Origin: Methanohalophilus sp.
GTDB taxonomy: Archaea; Halobacteriota; Methanosarcinia; Methanosarcinales; Methanosarcinaceae
Length of the DNA: 64,000 nt
NCBI RefSeq assembly: GCF_030156785.1
Contig: NZ_JASGLW010000003.1
Location: forward strand, 62,001-126,000
Reading direction: 5' to 3'
Below, one piece after another: positions 6,425 to 49,209 of this stretch; position 1 is the first letter of the stretch, and each line of letters begins with the position of its first letter. Made by a program: the position numbers and the translations under genes. A model generated the notes under the pieces. It was given only the letters and a program-made list of their open reading frames with translations. It was not told the origin of the DNA and ran no database searches.

Positions 6425-6942
6425 CAGGATACTCCAATTATAATGATGTGTATAATATTTGCCGGGAATTGGCTTTCCGGCATTGTGTAATAAGGATGCT
6501 GCATTGTATTTGCAGTTAAATTTGAACAACATTTTATTTAATCATATATAAGTTGAATGGAATGTTTAACCCATATTTCACTTTTTATACAGTTGTGATG
6601 ATTTAGAGTTTACTTTCGCCATTGTGATGTCATGAAGTCTTTGTACTCTCCTTATTGGCATGTCTCTCCATCTACACCTGTAATTACACCCTGTGATTAA
6701 AACAAAAAAGACCATTTATGATCTGACATCATCAGCTCTTCTCCTACCAGTTATTGTAGTGAAAGAAAAACATTTCTGATTTTGTCATATATATTGTTGG
6801 TTAACTGTTGGGATATAGTAGTTATAAGAATTGCATTTTTATGAGCAATTTACTTAATGATAAAAAGATTGTTAGCTGATTTCAACATTTGTCACGAATT
6901 ATTTATCAATAATGGGCCGTATGAAATTAGCAGGAGATTATT
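6425..6942. other. Intergenic region between divergent valS and iorA
   Basis: About 520 AT-rich bases without a supported gene. A minus-strand TATA box (complement of CATATATAAG, 6543-6552) probably drives valS with a leader of about 95 bases. On the plus side an ATTTATCAATAA element near 6900-6912 could be the iorA TATA box, followed by GGAGATT before the iorA ATG. No tRNA, repeat or conserved fold was recognised. Confidence 0.6.
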
Positions 6943-8748
6943 ATGAACAAACGCGAATACATGTTAGGGAACGTTGCAATAGCCCGCGGAATTGTGGAAG
7001 GTGCTGTGGACGTTGTATCCGGCTATCCTGGTACTCCATCATCCGAAATTATCGGAACCCTGTCTTCAATGAAGGAAAGGGATTTTTACGTAGAATGGTC
7101 AGTCAACGAAAAAGTTGCCCTTGAGGTTGCAGCAGGTGCATCGATGGCAGGTGCTCGTTCTGTTGTTACCATGAAACACGTTGGACTCAATGTTGCTGCT
7201 GATCCCCTTATGACTCTTGCATACATGGGTGTAAAAGGTGGAATGATCATCATAGTAGCTGACGACCCTGCATGCCATTCTTCGCAGAATGAACAGGATT
7301 CAAGACGCTACTCCGTATTTTCCATGATACCATGTCTTGACCCTGCGACCCCTCAGCAGGCAAAGGACATGATCCCTTATGCATTTGAATTGTCTGAAAA
7401 ATTCGAAATACCTGTAATATTCAGATCCACTACCCGTGTATCTCACGGTAAATCGGACATTGAACTTGGAGAAATTCAGGAAAAGAACAGGGAGATCCAC
7501 TTTGAGAAGAATCCTGATCGCTGGGTAATGGTTCCAAAAAATGCCCGTGTTCGCCATCCGCACCTCCTGGCAATTCAGCCGGAAATCCAGAAAGAACTTG
7601 AGAGTTCTCCATGGAATGAGTTGTGTCTCAAAGAAGGGGCAAAGATCGGAGTCATAGCTTCAGGTGTTGCAAGTATCTATGCCGAAGAAGCTCTTGAAAA
7701 ACTAGGGGTAGAAGCATCCCTGCTCAAAATAGGCACGTACCCGATACCTGAAACAATGGTTAAGGAAATACTTTCCAGTACGGAAAAAGTGCTTGTTATT
7801 GAGGAACTTGAACCGATTGTGGAAGACATGTGCAAAGTGATTGCATATGATGCCGATATTCCTGCAAAGATTCTCGGCAAAGCAGACGGGCTGGTTACAA
7901 GGCTGGGAGAGCTTAACGTGCACCTTTGTGAGAAAGCCATTGCTGATGCATTTGGAATAGATGCGGATCTGGAATGTCCAGAACCTACAAGCCTTGAGTT
8001 GCCGATTCGTCCTCCTGCAATGTGTCCGGGATGCTCCCACAGGGGTGTATTCCATGCCATGAAGAAAGTATTCGGAAAAGATGCTATTTTTCCGAGTGAC
8101 ATCGGATGTTACACACTCGGTATTCAGCATGGGACGGTTGACACAACCCTCTGTATGGGTGCAAGTATCACCGTGGCATCAGGAATCTATAATGCCGGAG
8201 AAAAACGGCCAATATGCTGTACTATTGGAGACTCCACTTTTTTTCATACAGGAATTAACGGCCTTTTGAATGCTGTTTATAATAAATCAAATATCACAGT
8301 TCTTATTCTTGACAACCGCATCACTGCCATGACAGGTCATCAGGAAAACCCTGGCATGGGCAAGACTGCCACAGGTGACCCAACGGTGGAAATTGATTTT
8401 GAATTGCTGTGCCGTGGATTGGGAGCAGAATTTGTAGAAACGGTTGATGCTTATGACATGAGAGCCGTAGAAGATGTTTTGCAGAGAGCAAAAGATTACG
8501 AAGGTGTTTCCGTAGTTATTCCAAAGCGTGAATGTGTGATTTCCGCCAGAAGGGCAGGAACCCGCTTTAAGCCTTATACTGTTGTTGAGGAGAACTGCAT
8601 TGGTTGTCGCAAATGCCTTAGTTTTGGCTGTCCAGCAATTGAATTTGATCTGGAGTCCGGGAAAGCAAAGATCAATGCTACATGCAGTGGATGCGGGTTG
8701 TGTGTAGAAATATGTCCTGTCGGTGCAATCGTGGAGGTGCAAAAATGA
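6943..8748 (+). CDS. iorA: Indolepyruvate:ferredoxin oxidoreductase, alpha subunit
   Basis: The 601-residue alpha subunit oxidatively decarboxylates aryl pyruvates (from Trp, Phe, Tyr) to aryl-acetyl-CoA with ferredoxin, or runs in reverse for aromatic amino acid synthesis from aryl acetates. It has the pyruvate:ferredoxin oxidoreductase-type N-terminus (GYPGTPSSEIIGTL), a TPP-binding domain around 350-500 (CPGCSHRGVF, then GDSTFFHTGI) and two C-terminal [4Fe-4S] ferredoxin motifs (CIGCRKCLSFGCP and CSGCGLCVEICP). It overlaps iorB by 4 bases (ATGA), so the two are translationally coupled. Confidence 0.96.
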   Translation: MNKREYMLGNVAIARGIVEGAVDVVSGYPGTPSSEIIGTLSSMKERDFYVEWSVNEKVALEVAAGASMAGARSVVTMKHVGLNVAADPLMTLAYMGVKGGMIIIVADDPACHSSQNEQDSRRYSVFSMIPCLDPATPQQAKDMIPYAFELSEKFEIPVIFRSTTRVSHGKSDIELGEIQEKNREIHFEKNPDRWVMVPKNARVRHPHLLAIQPEIQKELESSPWNELCLKEGAKIGVIASGVASIYAEEALEKLGVEASLLKIGTYPIPETMVKEILSSTEKVLVIEELEPIVEDMCKVIAYDADIPAKILGKADGLVTRLGELNVHLCEKAIADAFGIDADLECPEPTSLELPIRPPAMCPGCSHRGVFHAMKKVFGKDAIFPSDIGCYTLGIQHGTVDTTLCMGASITVASGIYNAGEKRPICCTIGDSTFFHTGINGLLNAVYNKSNITVLILDNRITAMTGHQENPGMGKTATGDPTVEIDFELLCRGLGAEFVETVDAYDMRAVEDVLQRAKDYEGVSVVIPKRECVISARRAGTRFKPYTVVEENCIGCRKCLSFGCPAIEFDLESGKAKINATCSGCGLCVEICPVGAIVEVQK

Positions 8749-10207: not shown

Positions 10208-11545
10208 TTACAGCAAATCCCTAAGATGAGCACGGTATCCAGCATCCTTGATCTGGAGAATATCTTCGCCTGCAAGGACTTCATATCCTTCCTAAATACT
10301 ACGATTAACGTGTTTACCAAGAGCGCAGTTATAAATCTCAGATTCCAGCAAATCCTTTGCATGAGAGAATTTGCGAGGTAATTCCGCAACGTATTTTCCA
10401 TCTTCAATGTAAAATTTAAATGTATCGGGATTGTTGATGTATTTATCTCTGAACTTCTCTGAATGCTCTTTTACCCACACAGGTGGCCCGAAATGTTTCC
10501 TTACATTTGACAGGCTCATATTCTCAAGTTCAATCGTCAACATAGACTTCTCATCTGCCCAAACCTTACTCTTGATTACATGAAAATCATGTTTTTCCAA
10601 TAGTGCTTCCACGGATTTCTGCATCTTGAAAAGCTGGGGATAAAGTATGTCTTCCACGGTATCAGGTGTTTTGAAGCATATTGCAACCAACCCGGTTTTC
10701 CTTTTTTTGAAGGAATCAAGGATTTCCTCATCCGACATGGGTATTGGATTTGCTTTCAGGAAAAATGTCTCTGATGGATTCCTGAGATAATCCCTTGAAA
10801 TGGAGATAAATTGAGTAAACCTTTCAAGTGTAAGGGCTGCTGCTACATTGCGGTTGGAGTCGATTGGGTCAACAACCACAAGTGGTTCTTCAAAACTATG
10901 TTTTGACTTGATCATTTCAATTGTCTCGCCCGGTTTCCATGAAGTAGCAGCCCTAAGCACTTTTTCAAAAGATCCATAGTGTATAACAAGTAGTTCACTC
11001 AGATACCCTGAAAAGCCACCAGTTCGGAGTTCTGACCCATATACTTCACCGGCTTTCATAAATTGCTTCAGGAGGAGAACATCATCCTCCAATCCTACAA
11101 TATGTTCCCTGACAAACAGATTATGGAAAGGGGTCCTATCGACGGCTGATATGATCTTCTCTGCACTTTCCACTCTGTAGCATGGAACGATATCAACATC
11201 AAATCCTGAAAATTTAAGTTTGGTATACGGATGTTCGGCATATCTTTCTTCCCAGCTTTCAGATTCCCTGGCAAGTTCCCGCCCTATCAAAAGACCATAT
11301 TCCTCAAGTTTATCTCTTGGAAGTGAAGGATCAAAGGAGATAAAAATATCCAGATCATGTGTGCCAGAAATCCAGGTCCCTCTCGCGGCAGAGCCTACCA
11401 ACTGGACTTCTACCCCCGGGATTTCATTTTCAGCTGCAATTTCCTCTGCCCTCTTCATAAGGTAAGAAGCAGTATTTTCAAGCCTTGTTTTTTCTTCATC
11501 TGAAGGCTTAATTTTTTCGAGAACCTGCTTTTCAATCGCATTCAT
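10208..11545 (-). CDS. cca: CCA-adding tRNA nucleotidyltransferase (archaeal class I), with one in-frame TAG
   Basis: Adds or repairs the 3' CCA of all tRNAs. The N-terminal nucleotidyltransferase motif is GSAARGTW followed by HDLDIFISF, whose Asp pair binds metal. The rest matches the archaeal class I enzyme. Conventional translation ends at TAG (10292-10294, codon 418) after LGKHVNRSI. The same frame continues for 27 codons (EGYEVLAGEDILQIKDAGY and on) to TAA at 10208, restoring a typical C-terminus and a usual length of 445 residues. UAG is most simply read as pyrrolysine. ATG at 11545 is chosen by family N-terminus; ATG 11554 and GTG 11566 are alternatives. A TATA box (CCTATAAATT) lies at about 11571-11582. 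Confidence 0.9.
10292..10294 (-). other. In-frame amber codon within cca, probable pyrrolysine
   Basis: TAG read on the minus strand at codon 418. The downstream 27 codons stay in frame without a further stop and resemble the end of the CCA-adding enzyme family. No ribosome binding site or start codon is visible for a separate downstream product. No obvious stem-loop (PYLIS-like) was recognised immediately 3' of it, and such an element is not required in archaea. Confidence 0.75.
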
Positions 11546-11668
11546 GTAGATCATTGCCGTAAACACTTAGTAATTTATAGGTTAATTTGGAATGTAAATG
11601 TTCCTTATCCTTCTCAACACTCTTTTCTGGAAATGGGATGTTCACTTATGTCAGAAAATAACAACTTT

Positions 11669-27689: not shown

Positions 27690-28688
27690 TTATCTCTCCC
27701 TGTATAGTGACATGATGTCACTCAGGATAGCGCTTGCAGTCTCAATGGATCCTGCACCAAGCCCACTTACGGTAATATCTCCTGCCAGATCAGTTTGTAT
27801 GTAGGCTACATTCAACGTACCTCCTACTGCAAGAGGATGATCAAGTGGGACCAATCTTGGTGATGCTTTTAGTGTACCGTCTTTCACTTCTCCGATAAGT
27901 CTCACAGCATACCCTTCATCATGGGCGAGCATAAGTGCTTCTGGAGTGATTTTTGTAATTCCCGTAACATCTACGTCGTGATAATTTACATCCATACCAA
28001 ACACACTGTTTGCAATAATTACAAGTTTTGAGGCCGTATCAATTCCTTCAACGTCATAGGTGGGATCCGTTTCTGCTATTCCAAGCTCCTGTGCCTCGGC
28101 AAGCATTTGTTCATAGGGAGCTTTTTCTTCCATCATCCTGCTTATAATGTAATTGCAGGTGCCGTTGAGTATTCCCTGAATACTCTTTATTTCATTTCCT
28201 GCAAGAGTTTCCCTGACCAGATTCAAGATCGGCATTGCTCCTCCAACAGTTGCTTCGTAGAGGAATTTCGAGCCATTTGCTTTAGCATAATTGATGAGTT
28301 CACTGAATCTAAGTGCCAGAGGTCCCTTGTTTGAAGTAATTACATCTCTTCCCTTGCTAAAAGCCATGCGCATATTTTCCAGTCCGACGCCGCCTGTTTG
28401 AATATCAGAGGGAGTGGTTTCAATTACCAGTTCATGCTCAATGTTTTCTATAATTTCAATACCGGAAAGCCTTTCTTCGGAAACCCTGCCAGTGCTGTCC
28501 TTGTGCTTTAGAATCTCTTCAAGATCCAATCCATCTGGGTCAACAATGCCACTACTGGAATCAGCAATTCCAACAACCTTGACCTCAAAACCTGCTTTTT
28601 TTATCTCATCCTCTTTCTGGATCAGGGTCCGGGCAACACCCCTTCCAACAGAACCAAATCCTATTATTGATGCACGTATTGTTTTCAT
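27690..28688 (-). CDS. hom: Homoserine dehydrogenase
   Basis: A 332-residue NAD(P)-dependent enzyme that reduces aspartate semialdehyde to homoserine for Thr and Met. It shows the Rossmann start [17 protein letters not shown], the SNKGPLAL segment, the substrate site [13 protein letters not shown] and the signature [14 protein letters not shown] with [16 protein letters not shown]. It lacks a C-terminal ACT domain, which is supplied by the separate ACT protein encoded 8 bases upstream, suggesting allosteric control in trans. GAGGTC precedes the ATG. Confidence 0.95.
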
Positions 28689-28696
28689 ATTTGACC

Positions 28697-29197
28697 TCAG
28701 GTTAGCTGTATTGGTTCTATAACAAGCAAGTCCTTCTTATTGGCTATATTTTTCAGGAGTTCGATTGCATTGTATAATTCTTGCCTTCCAACTGCATCAA
28801 TCTTTAGGGAGGCGGATGATGATGACTCTATATGCGGCATTGAAAGAGAGATATCAACAACTTCAGCATAGCCTGTTTTATCAATACTTTCAATTGTGTC
28901 TTGTATATCGGTATGAACAATGTGGCCTATTAACAAGACTGCTCCGTGTTCTATCATTCGCTCCTCATCAACACGAATAATGCCAATTCCATTTTCTTCC
29001 AGTCTTTTAATAATACTATCGACGTTGCTGGGTTCAGCTTCAAAAACAAGCTGTACAGGTATGGTTCCTCTTGGCGTGTGTTTTTCGTGATGATGCACTA
29101 TAGATTTCAGATTACCTTTTAACTCTGATATCGGCTAAAGAACATTAAGGAGTTGTCCGGGCGTGTCCTTAAGCTCAATGTCCATTGATACTCTCAT
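28697..29197 (-). CDS. ACT-domain amino-acid-binding protein, with one in-frame TAG
   Basis: A 166-residue ACT-domain protein. From ATG 29197, with GAGGAAAGG just upstream, it reads [20 protein letters not shown], then TAG at codon 21 (29135-29137), then [20 protein letters not shown] and on to TGA at 28697. The N-terminal beta-alpha-beta unit of the ACT fold spans the TAG, so the reading frame is one gene. An ORF caller would start at GTG 29098 and lose the first 33 residues. In homologues the TAG position is, from memory, usually Gln (CAG). Pyrrolysine is the likely amino acid. It lies 8 bases before hom and probably senses threonine or a related amino acid for it. Confidence 0.87.
29135..29137 (-). 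other. In-frame amber codon within the ACT-domain gene, probable pyrrolysine
   Basis: TAG at codon 21, between LLNVL and PISELKGN, inside the first ACT beta-alpha-beta unit. Frame, ribosome binding site and protein similarity hold on both sides. Termination here would leave a 20-residue peptide; restart at GTG 29098 would lack a good ribosome binding site and the first ACT strand. Confidence 0.78.
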
Positions 29198-29279
29198 ACC
29201 TTTCCTCACATAATTCATCTAAAATACTAATTTCGTATCACTAAAGCACAAATGCAGTTATACATTTTGGTATTTGTCT

Positions 29280-30188: not shown

Positions 30189-30543
30189 TGAGCCTGTTTC
30201 TAAAATATAAAAAGTATTTATCCTAATTATAGTTTGAGGGGATATTGAATAAAATTTAGAAAACGTTCTGATGATCAATGGGAATTTATCAAAGCTTTTC
30301 TACCACCACTGCCAAACTGGCAGAAGAAGAGCTTATGACCACACGATCATCAATGGTATTATCTTTGTTTTAATTACAGGGTATAGGTGGAAAGATATTC
30401 CTAAAATATATGGATCACTGGTAACTGCCATGAGAAGATTAAGACATTGGTCAAGTAAAAAGCATGTCAGCAATTTGAGGATACTGATTAATCATACCAC
30501 TACCGCGTCTGTAGATGCTCTTGAGACATATAAATTGTCATAA
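30189..30543 (+). mobile_element. Decayed IS5-family transposase remnant, copy 1
   Basis: TGAGCCTGTTTC at 30189 resembles the left inverted repeat of copy 2 (44782). After the shared leader (GTTTGAGGGG) the transposase N-terminus reads KRSDDQWEFIKAFLPPLP in one frame and GRRRAYDHTIINGIIFVLIT, GYRWKDIPKIYGS, RRLRHW in another, so there is a frameshift near 30320. These are typical of IS5-type transposases with the DUF4096 N-terminal region. After RRLRHW the similarity is lost, the DDE catalytic core is absent, and the frame stops at 30541. It cannot be active. No right inverted repeat was found. Confidence 0.75.
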
Positions 30544-47656: not shown

Positions 47657-49021
47657 TTACTTTTCATCTTCAGGGAAACCCTGTCCCTTAAGGAACTTAC
47701 CACGACCTTTTTTAGCAGTTATTTCACCGTCCCAGATTATTTCCCCTCTTGAAAAAGTAAATTTGGGAAAAATGCCTTCCATATCTTCATAAGGCGTCCA
47801 TCCAGCCTTGCTGTGCAATTCATCACCCTTTATTTTGTGAACATCTCGTGGGTCAATAATCACCAGGTCGGCATCAAAACCTTCAGCAAAAGACCCTTTG
47901 CCATGCCTATCCAGTCCAAATATTCTTGCAGGAGCTCCACTAGTCAGGTCGATCATGCGCCCCAACGGGAGTATATTTCGCTTCACAGCTACAAGCATCA
48001 GTGGTAAAAGAGTTTCAACTCCCGGAACCCCGGAAGGAGCGGATTTAATATCTCCTTCTTTTTCAAATTCACGATGAGGAGCATGATCTGAAGCAATCAT
48101 GTCAATAGTACCATCATTGATGGCATTTACCAATGCTTTCACGTTGCGCCTGTCTCTGAGAGGAGGGTTCATTTTTCCAAAAACACCAAGGTTATTCCAA
48201 TCCTTTGTAGAGAGGAACAAATGATGAGGAGCCACTTCTGCTGTCAGGGATGTGACACCGTTCTCCGAATTGATGAACTTCTGATATCGGATTTGCCCCA
48301 CTGCCTCCATTGTACTGATATGACAAAAATGACCCTTTACACTGGTTTTATTGAATTCATCGATTGCTTTTTTTACAGCAACACTCTCACATAAGTTTGA
48401 ACGAATCCTTGAATGTGACTCAAAGGAAAAATCCTTTTTCAAGAGGGTTTCATTTTTGAGACGTGTTTCCTCGTCTTCTGCATGAATACAGGCTATTGCA
48501 CCCAATCCACTTATTGATTCCAGTGCTTCATGAAGTATTTCATCATCAATACTCAAACCACCGGTTGATTGTGCCATGAAAATTTCACCAAAAGCACTAA
48601 CACCCAGTTCCCATAATTCAGGGAGCTGATCAACAGACTCAGTGACTCCACCATTAATCCCAAAATCAACAATGGATTTTCGGTTTGCAAGCTTAAGTTT
48701 TTGCTTGAATGATTTCCTGTCAATTGTCGGTGGCATTGTATTCGGATGATCAAAAACAGTCGTAATTCCTCCAGCTGCTGCCGCACAACTCCCCGTATAC
48801 CAATCTTCTTTGTGCTCAGAGCCAGGTTCCCTGAAATGCACGTGAACGTCGATTCCCGAAGGAATGGTAAGTCCACCTTTAGCATCAATTACCTGATCTA
48901 CATTCTCACCTTTCAGATCCTTTGCAATCCTTTTGATTTTGCCATCTTCAATCAGGACTTCACCTGGTTGCAGAAGATTGTTGTAAAAAACTCTGGTATT
49001 TGTGATCAGGATATCGCCCAT
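47657..49021 (-). CDS. pyrC: Dihydroorotase
   Basis: A 454-residue amidohydrolase that cyclises carbamoyl aspartate to dihydroorotate in pyrimidine synthesis. Metal and active-site residues: HVH (60-62) in IDVHVHFREPG, HPNTMPP, CIHAEDEE, GHFCHIST and the Asp of IASDHAPH. At the position of the usual carboxylated Lys (KIFM in many type I enzymes) it has Glu146 in FGEIFMAQSTGG. Pyrimidine partners pyrBI lie at 59.5-61 kb, not adjacent. GAGATGAGAG precedes the ATG. A minus-strand TATA (TTATATAAAG) lies near 49150-49160. Confidence 0.93.
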   Translation of the reverse strand: MGDILITNTRVFYNNLLQPGEVLIEDGKIKRIAKDLKGENVDQVIDAKGGLTIPSGIDVHVHFREPGSEHKEDWYTGSCAAAAGGITTVFDHPNTMPPTIDRKSFKQKLKLANRKSIVDFGINGGVTESVDQLPELWELGVSAFGEIFMAQSTGGLSIDDEILHEALESISGLGAIACIHAEDEETRLKNETLLKKDFSFESHSRIRSNLCESVAVKKAIDEFNKTSVKGHFCHISTMEAVGQIRYQKFINSENGVTSLTAEVAPHHLFLSTKDWNNLGVFGKMNPPLRDRRNVKALVNAINDGTIDMIASDHAPHREFEKEGDIKSAPSGVPGVETLLPLMLVAVKRNILPLGRMIDLTSGAPARIFGLDRHGKGSFAEGFDADLVIIDPRDVHKIKGDELHSKAGWTPYEDMEGIFPKFTFSRGEIIWDGEITAKKGRGKFLKGQGFPEDEK

Positions 49022-49181
49022 ACAACTCTCATCTCCATAACGAGAAATGGATTCAATAAAGATATGTATTTCTATGTCTTGCCCAAGCTACAAAGCAACC
49101 CAAAGCGGCTTGGTATAAAATAGGTTATACTTCGCTGCTAGGCTCTTTATATAATAAAGTCCCCTGTGACTGTTTGCCAAC

Positions 49182-49209
49182 AAAAACACAAGGGTATGAT
49201 TGTGTTTTT
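49182..49209. terminator. Perfect 10-base hairpin after gatE
   Basis: AAAAACACAA (49182-49191) and TTGTGTTTTT (49200-49209) form a perfect 10-base stem with loop GGGTATGA. It lies 30 bases downstream of the gatE stop on the minus strand, and its own 3' arm ends in a T run in either direction. It also separates gatE from the pyrC promoter. Confidence 0.65.

What the first reader, a model, noticed from the sequence alone, without database searches (positions are those of the whole stretch)
29099..29197. Second in-frame UAG, hidden in the ACT protein beside homoserine dehydrogenase
Upstream of the apparent GTG start at 29098 the frame continues through TAG (29135-29137) to ATG 29197 with a good ribosome binding site. 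The peptide [30 protein letters not shown] completes the first beta-alpha-beta unit of the ACT fold. A CAG to TAG change would explain it. Without readthrough the regulator loses a third of a domain. The product level of this amino acid sensor could thus depend on pyrrolysine supply, which would tie aspartate-family amino acid control to methylamine metabolism.
Basis: partly seen in the sequence, partly recalled or inferred. Interest (0 to 1): 0.85.

Follow-up and report, generated by a model that had tools for sequence, protein, structure and literature searches.

The report
Pyrrolysine codon inside an amino-acid sensor
In a methane-making archaeon the gene for a small amino-acid sensor next to homoserine dehydrogenase carries an in-frame UAG codon that is most likely read as the 22nd amino acid, pyrrolysine; several ordinary genes of this genome carry such codons, so it looks like tolerated drift in a loosened genetic code rather than a dedicated switch.

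Summary
On the minus strand, ATG 29197 to TGA 28697 is one 166-residue frame broken only by TAG at 29137-29135 (codon 21). The homologue is found in 90 of 99 genomes, own included; none of the other 89 has a stop. In the 54 loci read, the homologue aligns from the same ATG with GAGG before it, and codon 21 is a polar sense codon, CAA in the nearest relative. The genome has pylTSBCD and TAG-bearing mtmB and mttB. The case is not isolated: in 42% of the genome, six more genes have in-frame TAG with homology on both sides (CCA-adding enzyme, HtrA-like protease, radical-SAM protein, ModE-like regulator, aconitase, a corrinoid protein). Among 205 ortholog matches, after sorting by my judgement, the clear internal stops were five TAG, no TAA, no TGA, which argues against random error or decay. 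Best reading: tRNA-Pyl reads through the UAG, which arose by near-neutral drift, as described for Thg1 of Methanosarcina acetivorans. A regulatory link to methylamines is possible, but nothing shows it was selected. Translation was not tested.

The parts
28697..29197 (-). ACT-domain protein gene, 166 residues plus stop, single copy, tandem ACT-like fold, directly upstream of hom
29135..29137 (-). in-frame TAG, codon 21; CAA (Gln) in G005
29204..29207 (-). GAGG, likely ribosome binding site for ATG 29197; same motif 5-7 bases before the ATG in 55 of 55 loci
29096..29098 (-). internal GTG, the first ATG/GTG/TTG after the TAG, which a standard-code annotation could take as start
27690..28688 (-). 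hom, homoserine dehydrogenase; its ATG follows the ACT stop codon after 8 bases; the pair is adjacent in 54 of 54 loci
10208..11566 (-). CCA-adding enzyme with another in-frame TAG at 10294-10292 (codon 425 of 452); related case, not part of the same operon

Best explanation
The TAG works as a sense codon: tRNA-Pyl (anticodon CUA), charged by PylS with pyrrolysine made by PylBCD, reads it in competition with the release factor and gives a full-length 166-residue ACT protein with pyrrolysine at residue 21, in the helix of the first ACT domain. The codon arose in this lineage by near-neutral drift (Gln codon to TAG), tolerated because TAG is little used as a terminator here and the position accepts several polar residues. 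The same has happened in other unrelated genes of the genome. Shown: intact frame, conservation, machinery genes, other TAG genes, TAG bias among the clear internal stops. Inferred: actual translation, its efficiency, that the residue is pyrrolysine, and neutrality.
For: pylT-S-B-C-D cluster (PylS over cut-off) and mtmB and mttB with in-frame TAG. Homologues in 90 of 99 genomes, own included, only this one with a stop. Constraint after the TAG (dN 0.039, dS 1.065) and a near-identical N-terminus. Sample of 644 of 1551 kb: in 205 non-overlapping ortholog matches to G005 the clear internal stops are TAG in ACT, CCA enzyme, HtrA-like, radical-SAM and ModE-like genes and none TAA or TGA. Two further TAG genes: aconitase codon 151 and a corrinoid protein codon 161. 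A second genome of the genus, G003, has a TAG at another aconitase codon (375). Precedent: 20-30% amber readthrough of a uidA reporter and pyrrolysine observed in Thg1 of M. acetivorans (PMC2933860, passages and one section).
Against: No protein or read data. One assembly; the codon could not be resequenced. TAG ends pylB in both G000 and G005, so UAG may also terminate and the yield may be partial. The codon differs from the nearest relative's CAA by two bases and no intermediate was seen. The five-to-none count rests on my sorting of 30 raw stop positions in G000 (12 TAG, 11 TAA, 7 TGA).
Confidence: 0.84

Rival explanations
1. Sequencing or assembly error: the true codon is CAG or CAA and the gene is ordinary.
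For: Single assembly, TAG seen in one genome only; raw reads not available.
Against: Errors should also make TAA and TGA; the clear internal stops in 205 ortholog matches were five TAG, no TAA, no TGA. Taking one third as a generous chance of TAG, five of five has p about 0.004; leaving out the two window genes, three of three has p about 0.04. Both numbers rest on my sorting.
Confidence: 0.05
2. Gene decay or a shortened protein: the N-terminus is lost and translation starts at the internal GTG 29098, or the gene is dying.
For: Open frame of 133 codons from the GTG; hom has its own start region.
Against: It would lose strand 1, helix 1 and most of strand 2 of the first ACT domain; 54 of 54 loci align from the upstream ATG; the upstream 20 codons differ by one residue from G005 and GAGG is kept; no second copy in the genome.
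Confidence: 0.05
3. Selected regulatory switch: pyrrolysine supply sets the level of the full-length sensor and so ties the homoserine branch to methylamine or lysine status.
For: Readthrough yield should depend on charged tRNA-Pyl; UAG reading depends on growth substrate in Acetohalobium (PMC8211752, section 6); pyrrolysine is made from two lysines (same section), and lysine comes from the aspartate family (recalled).
Against: TAG absent from the 89 other genomes with the gene; no structure in the next 100 nt; six other unrelated genes carry TAG.
Confidence: 0.05

Closest known systems
Thg1 (tRNA-His guanylyltransferase) of Methanosarcina acetivorans, pyrrolysine by neutral evolution (Heinemann et al. 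2009, not held; known to me here only as cited in PMC2933860, PMC8211752, PMC3639795)
   Same: In-frame TAG in one species only, in a gene that is not a methylamine methyltransferase, in a Pyl-using methanogen
   Different: There pyrrolysine was physically observed (PMC2933860); here another gene, sequence evidence only, but several such genes in one genome
Methylamine methyltransferases MtmB and MttB
   Same: In-frame TAG; both present in this genome
   Different: There TAG is conserved and the residue is in the active site (PMC8211752); here it is lineage-specific and at a variable site
Archaea in which TAG is generally pyrrolysine (a 2025 report by Kivenson and colleagues, recalled; not found in the library)
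   Same: TAG rare as terminator and present as internal codon of ordinary genes
   Different: Here TAG still ends pylB and perhaps three other frames, 42% of the genome was sampled, and there is no proteomics
Tandem ACT-domain regulatory proteins (aspartate kinase and AHAS regulatory subunits, GcvR-like)
   Same: Fold matches with E down to 1e-8; ACT PF01842 E 0.00037 but 20.7 bits against a cut-off of 27; beside hom
   Different: 8-17% identity, TM-scores at most 0.43 of the query; ligand and partner not tested

Membership tests
Protein with ectopic pyrrolysine (Thg1 kind) | Intact homologous frame on both sides of one TAG | tested here: met
Protein with ectopic pyrrolysine (Thg1 kind) | Genome encodes tRNA-Pyl, PylS and PylBCD | tested here: met
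   tRNA-Pyl by ARAGORN, PylS by TIGR02367 over cut-off; PylB, C, D named from order and recalled features, not scanned against families
Protein with ectopic pyrrolysine (Thg1 kind) | TAG restricted to few genomes, position tolerant | tested here: met
   (1 of 90 genomes with the gene); column 21 in 23 homologues: N 6, K 6, Q 4, T 3, R 3, D 1
Protein with ectopic pyrrolysine (Thg1 kind) | Pyrrolysine physically present in the protein | not testable with these tools
   needs mass spectrometry
Regulated (programmed) pyrrolysine recoding | TAG conserved across relatives | tested here: not met
   0 of 89 other genomes with the gene
Regulated (programmed) pyrrolysine recoding | Stable RNA element downstream of TAG | tested here: not met
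   z -0.13 for the 100 nt from the TAG on; longer stretches not tried
Genome-wide code with TAG only as pyrrolysine | TAG absent as terminator | tested here: inconclusive
   TAG ends 10 of 477 picked frames of 150 codons or more; six of the ten lie inside longer genes (CCA, HtrA-like, mttB, aconitase, mtmB, corrinoid), one is pylB, three are unresolved
ACT-domain regulator of homoserine dehydrogenase | ACT fold and hom neighbour | tested here: met
   pTM 0.48, moderate; the five models range from pLDDT 78.8 to 56.6; 54 of 54 loci; Pfam match below cut-off
ACT-domain regulator of homoserine dehydrogenase | Binds an amino acid and controls HSD | not testable with these tools
   biochemistry needed

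The most novel reading that the evidence does not exclude
In this lineage TAG has become a general sense codon for pyrrolysine, and its presence in the sensor of the homoserine branch (and in aconitase and the CCA enzyme) makes core metabolism depend on pyrrolysine, itself made from lysine of the same aspartate family, so that the sensor's level reports lysine or methylamine status.
Probability: 0.06. Interest if true: 0.8.

Novelty: new member of a known kind. Interest (0 to 1): 0.45.

Why it matters
A 2021 review (PMC8211752, section 6) names methylamine methyltransferases, some transposases and Thg1 as the known pyrrolysine proteins. A genome with in-frame TAG in genes such as aconitase, the CCA enzyme and an ACT sensor makes it directly testable how far a stop codon can drift to sense. 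It predicts that tRNA-Pyl is needed here even without methylamines, whereas M. acetivorans without pylT grew normally on methanol and acetate (PMC2933860). It also means that standard-code annotation would cut such genes short.

Tried and rejected
Frames with TAG that I dropped: one search lists 30 picked frames with an internal TAG in 256 kb; ten were scanned with Pfam, ACT apart. Dihydroorotase at 47657-49189 (TAG codon 34), a chlorohydrolase-like gene in L078 (65), a TGT-domain gene in L071 (52) and an ABC-type gene in L074 (43): the family matches begin after the TAG, so the start is probably downstream. L078:18062-18988 (216): relatives have TGA and other stops in the frame, so I take it as an antisense shadow. 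L076:439-1038, GNAT-like (104): a weak Pfam match spans the TAG; left open. The rest of the 30 were not examined one by one.

Ortholog scan, raw counts. G000 stops in matches of G005 frames: first 20 residues TAG 3, TAA 4, TGA 1; middle TAG 9, TAA 4, TGA 5; last 20 residues TAA 3, TGA 1. G005 stops in matches of G000 frames: first 20 TAG 1, TAA 2, TGA 2; middle TAA 6, TGA 3; last 20 TAA 1. I kept five middle TAGs in G000 and dropped the rest by judgement, from mismatches by codon position and frames on the other strand. Dropped TAGs: one at residue 25 of 269 and three in two short frames of C9 135-137 kb with several stops. Cases against me: a TAA on C4 (21518) and, in G005, a TAA and a TGA had coding-like patterns on both sides; I take them as antisense shadows because a frame on the other strand covers them (933 codons on C4 in G000; frames of similar size kept in both genomes for the other two). 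An 86-residue frame on C10 with TGA and TAA is treated alike. The ACT TAG, at residue 21, is only just past my 20-residue cut and rests on its own evidence. G012's HtrA homologue has one TAG and one TAA in its match, not followed up.

Other: stops between long frames without homology were uninformative. No RNA structure after the TAG. One aRF1 over the cut-off in each of 8 genomes, so no loss or doubling of it. Searches for a general archaeal pyrrolysine code: no paper; some searches gave lists in which I saw none on it. Heinemann 2009 is not held. A search on hom and ACT in Methanosarcina gave one paper, not opened.

Full report
What is there. The minus strand of the window holds, from ATG 29197 to the TGA ending at 28697, a 166-residue frame interrupted once by TAG at 29137-29135. 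After 8 more bases comes the ATG of hom (27690-28688), homoserine dehydrogenase by NCBIfam NF004912 over its cut-off. The pair is adjacent and in the same orientation in 54 of 54 loci, L002-L055; some of these are probably the same genomes fetched by two tools. The window lies in G000, 1,550,882 bases in 19 contigs, 94.55% complete. The tool gives it no name. The best named hits are Methanohalophilus euhalobius at 80% and, at 79%, two more Methanohalophilus and Methanococcoides vulcani; I take the genus to be Methanohalophilus or near it. G005, of the same genus, is nearest at 92%.

The codon in relatives. Of 99 genomes, own included, 90 have the gene and 9 gave no match; only the own copy has a stop inside. 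In the 54 loci read, the homologue aligns from the same ATG with MRVSMD, and GAGG lies 5-7 bases before it (55 of 55 with the own). Codon 21 there is AAT 11, ACA 9, AGA 7, AAC 6, AGG 5, AAA 5, AAG 4, GAT 2, CAG 2, CAA 2, CGA 1. In 23 of these 54 chosen for alignment the residue is N 6, K 6, Q 4, T 3, R 3, D 1. So the site is variable and polar. The step from CAA needs two base changes; CAG as an intermediate is inferred.

Selection and fold. Against G005, codons 22-164 give dN 0.039 and dS 1.065; codons 2-20 give 1.0 nonsynonymous and 3.0 synonymous differences. This shows long-term constraint; it cannot date the TAG. The model (24 sequences, mean pLDDT 78.8 for the best of five that range down to 56.6, pTM 0.48) has two ACT-like repeats; strand 2-10, helix 15-25 and strand 29-35 come first, and residue 21 is in that helix. 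Fold matches include tandem ACT proteins and AHAS and aspartate kinase regulatory subunits, with TM-scores of about 0.3-0.4, perhaps because the placement of the two domains is uncertain. Starting at GTG 29098 would leave 133 codons and remove strand 1, helix 1 and most of strand 2.

Machinery. L067 (C9:30000-49000) holds tRNA-Pyl 6923-6994, anticodon CTA, pylS 7087-8307, and three genes that I name pylB, pylC and pylD from their order and recalled features. PylS is over its cut-off in 8 of 8 genomes of the genus, own included. mtmB has one TAG; mttB, TIGR02369 over its cut-off, has TAG at codon 334 of the frame listed. One aRF1 is over the cut-off in each of 8 genomes.

Not an isolated event. 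In 644 kb of G000 I looked for in-frame stops in matches to frames from 511 kb of G005. Of 205 non-overlapping matches, after removal of start-near, end-near, antisense and many-stop cases by judgement, five clear internal stops remain in G000 and each is TAG: ACT (G005 codon CAA), CCA-adding enzyme (CAA), HtrA-like protease (AAG), radical-SAM protein (AAA), ModE-like regulator (GAG). Raw counts and contrary cases are in Tried and rejected. For the CCA enzyme the TAG (codon 425) lies after the end of the TIGR03671 match (11-418) but inside Pfam's C-terminal domain match (289-433), and the matches in the 29 other genomes searched reach residue 439 or beyond. The HtrA-like gene has a match in 15 of 29 other genomes. 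In the converse scan G005 has no middle TAG.

Two more came from TAG-ended frames with long extensions: aconitase, codon 151, TAT in G005; and a corrinoid protein, codon 161, GAA in the three relatives read. These were sought among TAG only, so they do not count in the TAG-versus-other comparison. The corrinoid protein has an intact paralogue of 61% identity in the genome. G003 has a TAG at codon 375 of its aconitase, a different place. G005 has candidates of its own in the same list: two beta-helix/NosD proteins and a lipocalin-like protein; in the second beta-helix protein and the lipocalin-like one a Pfam stretch spans the TAG. They were not compared with relatives.

Chance. If an error or decay gave TAG in one of three stops, five of five has p 0.004; by the share of TAG among stop trinucleotides in the 256 kb sample, 4033 of 23384, p is about 0.0002. 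The ACT and CCA genes lie in the window and are not independent of the finding; the other three alone give 0.04 and 0.005. All four numbers depend on my sorting.

How it works. A review (passages and one section read, PMC2933860) reports that a bacterial uidA gene with an amber codon gave mostly terminated product but also 20-30% full-length product with pyrrolysine in M. acetivorans, that UAG appears to be both sense and stop in such archaea, that pylB ends with TAG in several species, and that Thg1 carries pyrrolysine in M. acetivorans only. Another review (passages and one section read, PMC8211752) states that no cis element was found or required in E. coli and that transposases and Thg1 were the only further known cases. 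A 2013 prediction paper (passages, PMC3639795) discusses neutral candidates and includes Methanohalophilus mahii; the words homoserine and ACT domain do not occur in its main text. So plain competition between tRNA-Pyl and the release factor is enough to explain full-length ACT protein here, perhaps beside a useless 20-residue peptide. The 100 nt from the TAG on fold no better than shuffles (z -0.13).

The regulatory idea. If reading depends on competition, the yield should vary with charged tRNA-Pyl, so a physiological effect may exist. Nothing shows selection for it: the TAG is in one genome, at a tolerant site, and in company with at least six unrelated genes. I give it 5%.

Limits. A 2025 report of archaea with TAG only as pyrrolysine is recalled, not read; searches did not find it in the library, which says nothing about print elsewhere. 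If that report covers this genus, the genome-level picture is already known.

Noticed in passing
window 10292-10294 (-): In-frame TAG at codon 425 of the CCA-adding enzyme; matches in 29 of 29 other genomes searched, none with a stop inside.
   Followed up: yes
L135:7986-10760 (-) (G000 C10:27986-30760): Aconitase with in-frame TAG at codon 151 (Tyr in G005); another genome of the genus, G003, has a TAG at codon 375.
   Followed up: yes
L147:5514-6275 (+): B12-binding corrinoid protein with TAG at codon 161, Glu in three relatives read; an intact paralogue is nearby.
   Followed up: partly
L072:864-2108 (-): HtrA-like serine protease with TAG inside the trypsin domain, Lys in G005.
   Followed up: partly
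L141:533-1090 (+): ModE-like regulator (HTH_1 plus TOBE) with TAG in the HTH part, Glu in G005.
   Followed up: partly
L067:8312-9364 (+): pylB ends with TAG in both G000 and G005, with 39 further open codons that overlap pylC.
   Followed up: partly
L151:10300-11814 (-), L080:11248-14334 (+), L119:14184-14864 (+): G005 frames interrupted by TAG: two beta-helix/NosD-type proteins and a lipocalin-like protein; possible pyrrolysine sites in the relative.
   Followed up: partly
L076:439-1038 (-): GNAT-like frame of G000 with TAG at codon 104 inside a weak Pfam match.
   Followed up: no
window 30271-30543 (+): Looks like a transposase N-terminal fragment (recalled resemblance); a short stretch near it (window 30198-30353) resembles stretches elsewhere in the genome.
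   Followed up: no
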